In this document: positions 11,807-44,140 of the stretch, piece after piece
How the letters are laid out: each line of letters opens with the position of its first letter
How positions within the stretch are numbered: position 1 is the first letter of the stretch
NCBI RefSeq assembly: GCF_000020145.1
Contig: NC_010644.1
Span: forward strand, 992,001 to 1,056,000
Length of the DNA stretch: 64,000 nucleotides
DNA from: Elusimicrobium minutum Pei191
GTDB lineage: Bacteria; Elusimicrobiota; Elusimicrobia; Elusimicrobiales; Elusimicrobiaceae
Direction: 5' to 3'
Notes under the pieces: generated by a model
Told to the model about the DNA's origin: nothing
The model's database searches: none
The model's input: only the letters and a program-made list of their open reading frames with translations
Position numbers and translations under genes: made by a program

Positions 11807-11836
11807 CGTTCAAAACTATAAAATTTAAATTAAAAC

Positions 11837-11998
11837 ACCCCGGACTCACACCCGGGGTTTCTTTTGTTTCAAAACTTCGTTTTGTGATTTCACCCAACAA
11901 CAAACAGCAACGCCTCCACAACAGCAAGGCGGAGGGTTTGTGAAATCAGGAGGGTGCCCAACCCCGACTTACGCAGCGGGTATTCCATACTCTCATAA
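11837..11998. repeat. dispersed palindromic element, copy 1
   Basis: About 160 bp that recurs at 21690-21849. It opens with a terminator-like hairpin (ACCCCGG...CCGGGGT, then TTTCTTTT). Next come outer arms GATTTCAC (11886-11893) and GTGAAATC (11940-11947) around inner arms CCTCC and GGAGG. It ends with a conserved tail (ACTTACGCAG, then TACTCTNATAA). The left arm plus 18 nt (26 nt in all) is identical in both copies. No coding potential is seen. Confidence 0.75.
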
Positions 11999-12038
11999 TT
12001 AAATAAATATTAACCCGATAGCGGTTAATACTTATTTT

Positions 12039-12047
12039 TGATAAAAT
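12039..12047 (+). promoter_or_regulatory. extended -10 box (TGATAAAAT) of def
   Basis: TGATAAAAT ends 6 nt before the ATG of def. No Shine-Dalgarno sequence separates them, so initiation is probably leaderless. The inverted repeat TTAACC/GGTTAA at about 12011-12028 lies upstream. Confidence 0.5.
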
Positions 12048-21657: not shown

Positions 21658-21689
21658 AAAATTTACAATATAGTTTTATAAATTAAATT

Positions 21690-21849
21690 CCCCAGGCTTA
21701 CGCCTGGGTTTTCTTTATTTCTAAGCTTAGTTTTGCGATTTCACCCAACAACAAACAGCAACACCTCCGCAGCGGTAAAGCGGAGGTGTTGTGAAATCAG
21801 TGGGGAATCCATCACTAAACTTACGCAGAAGATGTTTCGTACTCTGATA
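21690..21849. repeat. dispersed palindromic element, copy 2
   Basis: Second copy of the element at 11837-11998. The leading hairpin is CCCAGGC-TTAC-GCCTGGG followed by TTTTCTTT. The outer arms GATTTCAC (21737-21744) and GTGAAATC (21791-21798) are unchanged. The inner stem CAACACCTCCGC / GCGGAGGTGTTG is perfect here. Confidence 0.75.
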
Positions 21850-21935
21850 AAAAACGGTTTAATTACCCGCGTAAGACAAATTAAAGTTTTTAAAAGCCTT
21901 GATTTTGCCGGGCGCGAATAAATTAAACCGTTTTT
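21850..21935. terminator. long-loop inverted repeat after the AsmA gene
   Basis: 15-nt arms AAAAACGGTTTAATT and AATTAAACCGTTTTT are 56 nt apart and T-rich on both outer sides. It lies 4 bp past the AsmA stop and may end transcription from both sides. The long loop makes a simple terminator less certain. Confidence 0.45.
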
Positions 21936-21938
21936 ATT

Positions 21939-34684: not shown

Positions 34685-35200
34685 ATGAAAAAAGGGTTTA
34701 CATTAATTGAATTATTGGTAGTGGTATTAATAATCGGAATACTCGCCGCAATAGCATTGCCACAGTATAACAAGGCTGTGGAAAAATCGCGCGCGGTGGA
34801 AATGCTTAGCAATTTAAGCTCGCTCAAAAAATCCGTGGATATCTTTTTTATGGAAGGCGGCGACATAGACCATTTGGACATTGAAAGTTTATCTATTGAA
34901 ATACCCGGCGCTAAAATATCCGGAAGCACAGGTTTAAATAAAATAGAGACAAGAAATTTTATATACAGAGTGGGCAGAGCTTCCGACAGCACAGGATCGC
35001 CGATTGTAACCGCTACAAGGGTTAGAAACTCAAACACCCTTTACCTTGCAATGCAGTTAACCCCGCCAACACATTCCTGCCATAATACCTGTTGCTGGTA
35101 CACAGCTGCAAATGAATCTTTATGCAAAGCTATCGGCTTTACCGAGACGGCAGCCCAAAGTTGCAGTATAACATCTTTAGGATGCAGTAAATATAAATAA
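34685..35200 (+). CDS. type IV pilin-like protein (PilE type)
   Basis: 171 aa. It has a class III signal: MKKG followed by FTLIELLVVVLIIGIL, with Glu5 of the mature protein. It is processed by prepilin peptidase and assembled into a pilus or pseudopilus. The C-terminal part has two Cys-rich clusters (CHNTCCW, and Cys residues near the end). No pilus assembly gene is adjacent. A weak hairpin (TCCGG/CCGGA, about 35208-35223, then T-rich) could end it. Confidence 0.88.
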   Translation: MKKGFTLIELLVVVLIIGILAAIALPQYNKAVEKSRAVEMLSNLSSLKKSVDIFFMEGGDIDHLDIESLSIEIPGAKISGSTGLNKIETRNFIYRVGRASDSTGSPIVTATRVRNSNTLYLAMQLTPPTHSCHNTCCWYTAANESLCKAIGFTETAAQSCSITSLGCSKYK

Positions 35201-35349
35201 AACTGTCCGGAGTAAAGACCGGAGCTTATTTTATTTCAATACTTAGCTTTGTATTTGCGCGCTACTTCCGTCTTTATTCCGAAAAAGCCGCACGTTAAAA
35301 CCTACCCTTACCCCGGCTTACGTAAGAAAGTTTTTACAATATAATAAAA

Positions 35350-35379
35350 AACCCCCCGGCTTTATAAGCCGGGGGGTTT
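35350..35379 (-). terminator. terminator of the kinase/phosphatase operon
   Basis: AACCCCCCGGC / GCCGGGGGGTT, with TTTTTTATTAT on the minus strand. Confidence 0.9.
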
Positions 35380-39132: not shown

Positions 39133-39164
39133 ACCCCCCCGGGGATAATCCCCGGGGGGGTTTT
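39133..39164 (+). terminator. terminator of rpmE
   Basis: ACCCCCCCGGGG / CCCCGGGGGGGT followed by TTTATTTTT. Confidence 0.9.
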
Positions 39165-39426
39165 ATTTTTAAACCGCCGCTTTAGCCGGGTAAACATAAA
39201 ATACATAATTTTTAAAACACAAAAACGCGCAAGCCCATTATTACGCAGCGACATTATCTGTTAACTCAGGTTAATTAAATTGACAACTCTAATAAACTAT
39301 TTTATTTCATATCAAAATTGATCTTTACTTAACAATAAATACCCCCGCCTTCTCCGCGGTTACGCGCGGGAAATAGCACCAGGTTATTTATATTCCTTTT
39401 TTAAAACAACGGATTTTACTTTTAAA
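39165..39426. other. intergenic region without a recognised gene
   Basis: AT-rich. The stretch 39228-39275 (TTACGCAGCG then TTAACTCAGG) resembles the tail of the dispersed element at 11837 and 21690. A GC-rich hairpin (CCCGC...GCGGG) lies at about 39343-39371. Nothing else can be supported. Confidence 0.35.
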
Positions 39427-43980: not shown

Positions 43981-44140
43981 GAAGTGAAGCTGCAACATGT
44001 ATAAGCACACTTTAAAATGACGTATAAAAACCCCAGGCTCACACCTGGGGTTTTTGTAAATTTTAAAGCCCCGTTTTTTTGCTTCACCCAAAATTCTTAT
44101 CTTTGTAAAAATTTTAAAGTGCGCTTTTATCGGGGCTTTT
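43981..44140. repeat. interleaved inverted repeats with a diverged copy of the dispersed element
   Basis: Three arm pairs cross each other: GTGAAGC (43984-43990)/GCTTCAC (44081-44087), AAGCACACTTTAAAAT/ATTTTAAAGTGCGCTT, and AAAGCCCCG/CGGGGCTTT. The part 44030-44095 (CCCCAGGCTCACACCTGGGG, then GCTTCACCCAA) matches the start of the elements at 11837 and 21690, so it may be a third, eroded copy. Confidence 0.5.
44026..44055. terminator. bidirectional terminator between lyase and Cys-rich prepilin genes
   Basis: AAAAACCCCAGG / CCTGGGGTTTTT, between convergent genes. Confidence 0.85.

What the first reader, a model, noticed from the sequence alone, without database searches (positions are those of the whole stretch)
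11837..11998. Dispersed ~160-bp palindromic element with two clear copies
Copies at 11837-11998 and 21690-21849 share a leading terminator-like hairpin, a 26-nt identical left arm, inner and outer stems, and a conserved tail. In copy 2 the inner stem is perfect with changes on both sides, hinting at selection for structure. A diverged start lies at 44030-44095 and a tail-like piece at 39228-39275. It may be a MITE/REP-like element or a structured RNA family.
Basis: seen in the sequence. Interest (0 to 1): 0.6.

Follow-up and report, generated by a model that had tools for sequence, protein, structure and literature searches.

The report
Orphan IS200-derived mini-transposons beside gene terminators
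The repeated 160-base element is the stripped-down, no longer self-mobile remnant of a tiny jumping gene (IS200 type) that settled dozens of times right behind the stop signals of genes in this bacterium, so it is a known kind of thing with an unusually precise landing habit.

Summary
They are neither a structured-RNA family nor classical terminal-inverted-repeat MITEs. Sister genera carry the parent, an IS200/IS605-family IS with one HUH/Y1 transposase (NF033573, 111.5 bits, cut-off 55). Its 3' end matches the element's left end at 35 of 36 bases; its 5' end abuts a terminator, as the element's right end does. One sister genome holds IS, internally deleted IS and elements sharing the 5' end (E=8e-26). 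The elements fit the PATE definition (transposase-less IS605-type derivatives; PMC3119063). Two patterns stand out: a terminator hairpin lies within 14 nt of the junction in 27 of 38 copies, versus 54 of 917 control TTTAT sites; and in 31 of 38 the transposase-sense strand is the lagging-strand template (p=1e-4), as expected for single-strand transposition. No matching transposase is found here and copies are 58-82% identical: old and apparently orphaned. Terminator preference of IS200 elements was not found in my literature searches.

The parts
11830..11998 (-). Copy 1 of the IS200-derived element (strand given = transposase-sense strand of the parent IS; the finding reads the + strand)
   Evidence: L001 in alignment A1; R1 hit E=1.7e-28
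11838..11857 (.). Left hairpin of copy 1 = right-end (3') hairpin of the parent IS; on the + strand it looks like a terminator for the upstream gene
   Evidence: IS 3' end 35 of 36 identical to the element consensus
11886..11947 (.). Central stem (GATTTCA..TGAAATC) with inner hairpin; proposed counterpart of the CCCCAAATCTTC..GAAGATTTGGGG stem that encloses tnpA in the parent IS
   Evidence: correspondence by position and architecture, inferred
11962..11981 (.). Right hairpin of copy 1 = left-end (5') hairpin of the parent IS
12009..12039 (.). Weak terminator-like hairpin beside copy 1 (fails the strict test)
21682..21850 (-). Copy 2 of the element
   Evidence: L009 in A1; R1 hit E=8.2e-28
21851..21937 (.). 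AAAAACGGTTTAATT..AATTAAACCGTTTTT inverted repeat right of copy 2, possibly an interrupted terminator (fails the strict test)
35197..35347 (-).
   Evidence: R1 hit E=1.0e-6, L117, sequence
35352..35376 (.). Intrinsic terminator CCCCCCGGCTTTATAAGCCGGGGGG directly beside copy 3

Best explanation
The element is a transposase-less derivative (PATE) of an IS200-like insertion sequence of the IS200/IS605 family. Read on the finding's minus strand it runs 5'-[terminator hairpin + TTTAT of a host gene]-[left-end hairpin]-[central stem, internal remnant]-[right-end hairpin]-TTTYAT-3'. Shown here: matching ends in transposase-bearing ISs of sister genera, a series from IS to internally deleted IS to element in one genome, insertion next to terminators, a replichore-dependent strand bias, and no matching transposase in this genome. 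Inferred: an IS200-type TnpA once present in this lineage recognised the subterminal hairpins, cut the transposase-sense strand at TTTAT/TTTYAT on the lagging-strand template and inserted the elements behind gene terminators; the enzyme was then lost and the copies decayed. The left hairpin now probably serves as terminator for the upstream gene, since 23 of the 32 left-hand genes that read towards the element stop within 60 nt of it.
For: IS with intact TnpA in sister-genus genomes: L153 (G042) and L135 (G045); L154 (G057) carries a broken tnpA. TnpA is IS200/IS605 family (NF033573 111.5 bits, cut-off 55; PF01797 98.9, cut-off 23) and matches ISHp608 TnpA (2a6m, E=1.4e-16). IS 3' end versus element left-end consensus: score 67 for L153 and 60 for L154, 0 of 1000 shuffles reaching either (largest 26 and 27), 35 of 36 identical for L153. 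G006: IS 5' end versus its elements, BLASTN E=8e-26 and 2e-20; a tnpA lacking roughly residues 19-100 is present there. Seven insertions in one named bin (L184-L190) end exactly at CCCCGGGC..GCCCGGGGAGTTTCAT and then diverge, fixing the 3' boundary. Terminator adjacency: strict test 28 of 38 versus 2.4% of control windows; hairpin within 14 nt of the junction 27 of 38 versus 54 of 917 control TTTAT sites, and 24 of 38 junctions read exactly TTTAT. Strand bias 31 of 38, p=1.2e-4, still 24 of 29 in convergent gene pairs, p=5e-4. The gene on the terminator side reads towards the element in 35 of 38. No TnpA match even at E<=10 in this genome.
Against: The parent enzyme is not in this genome, so mobilisation is inferred from relatives. 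The IS left end is much less similar to the element than the right end: shuffles reaching the score, of 1000, were 0 (L154), 1 (L134), 2 (L155), 20 (L133), 57 (L135) and 63 (L153). For two of the six ISs the right end is also weak (L135, 4 of 1000; L155, 23 of 1000). No clean filled-versus-empty pair was seen: the one site compared (G002) is only about 71-74% identical. Two of seven G006 elements (L166, L169) and the ISs L134 and L155 are not directly next to an obvious terminator (read by eye).
Confidence: 0.93

Rival explanations
1. A structured RNA family (small RNA or cis-regulator) with many copies, each ending in its own terminator.
For: Several hairpins; one inner-stem pair changes on both sides in 10 of 27 copies; in eight sister-genus elements 0 of 500 shuffles reach the observed covariation.
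Against: In this genome the structure is paired 82.5% versus 81.8% in shuffles and the consensus fold keeps only 6 pairs; the only Rfam match in the window is a tRNA; the inner loop is inverted in 7 of 31 copies scattered over the tree; the ends are those of a transposon. Pairing in DNA hairpins can also be kept by transposase recognition or arm correction.
Confidence: 0.03
2. A REP/REPIN-type element moved by the RAYT-like (REP-associated tyrosine transposase) protein that this genome does encode at 650497-650826.
For: It is the only Y1 transposase found in the genome; REPs are also palindromic and extragenic.
Against: The gene is flanked by its own, different palindrome GGGACA..GTGTCCC on both sides; the element's ends match IS200 ends around 143-aa TnpA genes. 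The protein scores 71 bits against a cut-off of 80 for NF047646, so even its class is only probable.
Confidence: 0.02
3. Same IS200-derived element, but the terminator association comes from selection (only harmless insertions survive) rather than from targeting.
For: Copies are old (58-82% identical), so harmful insertions have had time to vanish.
Against: The hairpin lies within 14 nt of the junction in 27 of 38, against 5.9% of TTTAT sites in the same loci; selection for harmlessness would allow any place in an intergenic region. IS copies of sister genomes show the same adjacency where their left end is visible (for example L175, L181, L194).
Confidence: 0.3

Closest known systems
PATEs (palindrome-associated transposable elements) of Haloquadratum walsbyi, PMC3119063 (passages read)
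   Same: No terminal inverted repeats, near-terminal palindromes related to those of IS605-type transposons, too short for a transposase, some clearly core-deleted transposons, numerous in genomes whose IS200-type transposases are mostly or all broken
   Different: Bacterial; parent is a tnpA-only IS200-type element; placed behind intrinsic terminators; no recent insertions seen
IS200/IS605 family, IS200 type (tnpA only)
   Same: HUH/Y1 transposase, subterminal hairpins, short T-rich target 5' of the left end, lagging-strand-template bias (the bias is also stated in PMC7923331, passages)
   Different: The finding's copies have no gene; a preference for a terminator hairpin next to the target motif was not found described
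Group IIC introns
   Same: Insert next to intrinsic-terminator hairpins (stated in PMC7923331, passages)
   Different: Retroelements with a ribozyme and reverse transcriptase; nothing of that kind was seen here
RAYT-mobilised REPs/REPINs
   Same: Extragenic palindromes tied to a Y1-type enzyme
   Different: Different palindrome, different Y1 subfamily

Membership tests
PATE (IS200/IS605-derived non-autonomous element) | Near-terminal palindromes at both ends, related to those of an IS200/IS605-type transposon | tested here: met
   (right end of the IS strongly, left end weakly outside G006)
PATE (IS200/IS605-derived non-autonomous element) | No terminal inverted repeats | tested here: met
   Ends read ATRAAACT.. 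and ..CTCTCATAA, not inverted copies of each other
PATE (IS200/IS605-derived non-autonomous element) | No target-site duplication | tested here: inconclusive
   None evident at the junctions, but no near-identical empty site to prove it
PATE (IS200/IS605-derived non-autonomous element) | Too short to code for a transposase | tested here: met
   114-175 nt
IS200/IS605 family (parent IS) | TnpA of the HUH/Y1 type | tested here: met
   NF033573 and PF01797 over cut-off; HIH motif and the C-terminal Tyr region align with a solved relative
IS200/IS605 family (parent IS) | Fixed short target motif 5' of the left end | tested here: met
   TTTAT in 24 of 38 element junctions, also in IS copies L175, L181, L193, L194
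IS200/IS605 family (parent IS) | Transposed strand lies on the lagging-strand template | tested here: met
   31 of 38 element copies, 24 of 29 in convergent pairs
IS200/IS605 family (parent IS) | Guide bases 5' of each hairpin pair with the cleavage motif (recalled) | tested here: inconclusive
   By eye ATAAA before the left hairpin complements TTTAT in L175, L181, L193, L194, but the element consensus here (GGAACA) does not
IS200/IS605 family (parent IS) | TnpA-dependent movement of the element | not testable with these tools
   needs a transposition assay
Structured RNA family | Covariation clearly beyond shuffled controls in this genome's copies | tested here: not met
   pairs with a change on both sides 13 vs 11.0 (119 of 500 shuffles), covariation score 31 of 500
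RAYT/REP | Palindrome shared with the flanks of the cognate RAYT gene | tested here: not met

The most novel reading that the evidence does not exclude
The TnpA of this IS200 clade recognises a DNA hairpin followed by TTTAT, so that intrinsic terminators, exposed as folded single strands on the lagging-strand template, are its real target: a structure-guided safe-haven strategy in a Y1 transposase, convergent with group IIC introns.
Probability: 0.45. Interest if true: 0.6.

Novelty: new variant of a known kind. Interest (0 to 1): 0.4.

Why it matters
It explains a dispersed repeat of a bacterium from a little-studied group, gives its parent and its target rule, and shows a fossil record of single-strand transposition (strand bias by replichore) in a genome in which the enzyme is no longer found. 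If terminator targeting is active, it offers a simple Y1 enzyme that inserts at hairpin plus TTTAT, useful for asking how such transposases choose targets and how terminators serve as safe sites.

Tried and rejected
Structured RNA: consensus fold, pair counts, Rfam; not supported in this genome. RAYT-like protein as mobiliser: its own palindromes differ. A long autonomous copy in the same genome (ends far apart around a gene): none seen, and no TnpA. Two inverted elements 0.9 kb apart in G006 enclose a gene whose product looks like a lipoprotein (by eye), not a transposase. Core-pattern scan of genome contigs: 0 hits. Target duplication: none evident. Orthologous-site comparison: in G002 the O6-methylguanine methyltransferase and peptide deformylase genes overlap (TAGTG) where copy 1 and its surroundings add about 250 bp here; the divergence is too great to define a clean empty site. 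Of the 30 loci I printed the 28 from other genomes; most weaker ones look like ordinary GC-rich terminators and were not counted as elements. Most of the extra loci were not inspected, apart from the G006 stretches fetched.

The tree used 31 of 38. The end comparison used six ISs (L153, L154, L135, L133, L134, L155). One search was a script whose motif filter was too strict and missed most transposases; one search replaced it.

Full report
What was reported.

Check. Both copies are real and far from chance. The window lies at 992001-1056000 of a single 1,643,562-base contig; from memory this length is that of Elusimicrobium minutum Pei191, which no call confirmed. BLAST gave 27 clear copies; a covariance model (A1; R1) gave 36 at E<1e-5, three of them in the window. 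Conservation begins and ends sharply: ATRAAACT on the left, CTCTCATAA on the right.

Surroundings. At the right end each copy meets a different sequence that is usually an intrinsic terminator: 28 of 38 by a strict test against 2.4% of control windows, while the left side has 1 of 38. Genes are convergent in 29 of 38 and the gene on the terminator side reads towards the element in 35 of 38. In the window the neighbours of copy 1 are an O6-methylguanine-DNA methyltransferase and a peptide deformylase, of copy 2 an outer-membrane beta-barrel and an AsmA/DUF748 protein, of copy 3 an N-methylation-motif (pilin-like) protein and a PP2C phosphatase: no shared function.

RNA or DNA? The named structure is paired in 82.5% of cells against 81.8% in shuffles and the consensus fold keeps 6 pairs. 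One inner-stem pair does change on both sides (A-U 9, G-C 8, C-G 2). Sister-genus elements covary strongly, but hairpins that are transposase substrates would do so as well. The inner loop is inverted in 7 of 31 copies that do not cluster on the tree, which points to repeated DNA-level hairpin events.

The parent. R1 over 100 related genomes found elements with the same left hairpin, a similar right hairpin, a changing central stem and mostly a terminator on the right in sister genera; R2 found more. Scanning the same 100 genomes for Y1 transposases (50 of 100 have one) showed that IS200-like genes of about 145 codons coincide with element-like ends in G042, G057 and G002. Reading these loci gave, in G042, G057 and the sister bins, the order terminator, T-rich target, left-end hairpin, tnpA, AAAGAAACCCCGGGCGTGAGCCCGGGGAGTTTCAT. 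The last part is the reverse complement of the element's left end, 35 of 36 identical for G042 (0 of 1000 shuffles). In G006 the IS left end and two elements align over about 84 nt (E=8e-26 and 2e-20), and the same genome holds an IS with most of tnpA deleted. A scan of named genomes returned 23 loci: Elusimicrobiaceae rumen and gut bins, Candidatus Avelusimicrobium, unnamed bins, and a few distant hosts (Uhrbacteria, Parcubacteria, Peregrinibacteria, Paracaedibacteraceae), which suggests horizontal spread. Seven insertions in one bin fix the right boundary at TTTCAT.

Target and strand. In the IS orientation the junction reads TTTAT in 24 of 38 copies, and a hairpin lies within 14 nt in 27 of 38, against 54 of 917 other TTTAT sites of the same loci. 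GC skew is positive below about 800 kb and negative above, so the origin is probably near coordinate 1. The transposase-sense strand lies on the lagging-strand template in 31 of 38 copies (p=1.2e-4), in 22 of the 27 strongest (p=0.0015) and in 24 of 29 convergent intervals, where gene direction alone cannot explain it.

State of the family here. No TnpA of this kind is found even at E<=10; the only Y1 gene is a RAYT-like protein with its own palindromes. Copies are 58-82% identical on a star-like tree. The family is therefore old and probably immobile. In 23 of the 32 copies whose left gene reads towards the element, that gene ends within 60 nt of it, so the left hairpin probably terminates that transcript; this is inference.

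Known or new. The PATE definition (PMC3119063, passages read) is met on each point tested except target duplication, which is inconclusive. Papers linking IS200/IS605 with terminators were sought (listings only; passages of one paper); none listed appeared to describe a terminator preference for this family. The library lacks most subscription journals, and the genome paper that I looked for is not held.

Doubts. The left end of the IS is poorly conserved between genera, the correspondence of the central stem is by position only, targeting versus survivorship is not settled (I give the strong form of targeting somewhat under even odds), and no transposition was shown.

Noticed in passing
L031 (genome 650497-650826): A RAYT-like Y1 transposase gene bracketed by inverted GGGACA..GTGTCCC palindromes, apparently a REP-RAYT unit distinct from the finding
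   Followed up: partly
A1 columns 96-104; L020, L021, L023, L025, L026, L111, L113: The inner hairpin loop (GCAGCAGCAAGGC type) is present as its reverse complement in 7 of 31 copies scattered over the tree, suggesting repeated loop inversion
   Followed up: partly
L022 (genome 894904-894997): The copy's tail seems partly duplicated in tandem before the right-hand flank
   Followed up: no
L039, L040: A different palindrome (GTCATTCCCGC..GCGGGAATCCAG type) sits inside or beside relatives' elements
   Followed up: no
L173, L176, L177, L178: Close relatives of the IS200 transposase in candidate-phyla bins and a Paracaedibacteraceae bin, with similar end hairpins, hinting at horizontal transfer
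   Followed up: partly
L161/L148: The G006 parent IS has its tnpA cut after about residue 115 and is followed by sequence that looks like another insertion element
   Followed up: no
window 39134-39170: A strong GC-rich hairpin CCCCCCCGGGGATAATCCCCGGGGGGG followed by a T-run, an ordinary terminator
   Followed up: no
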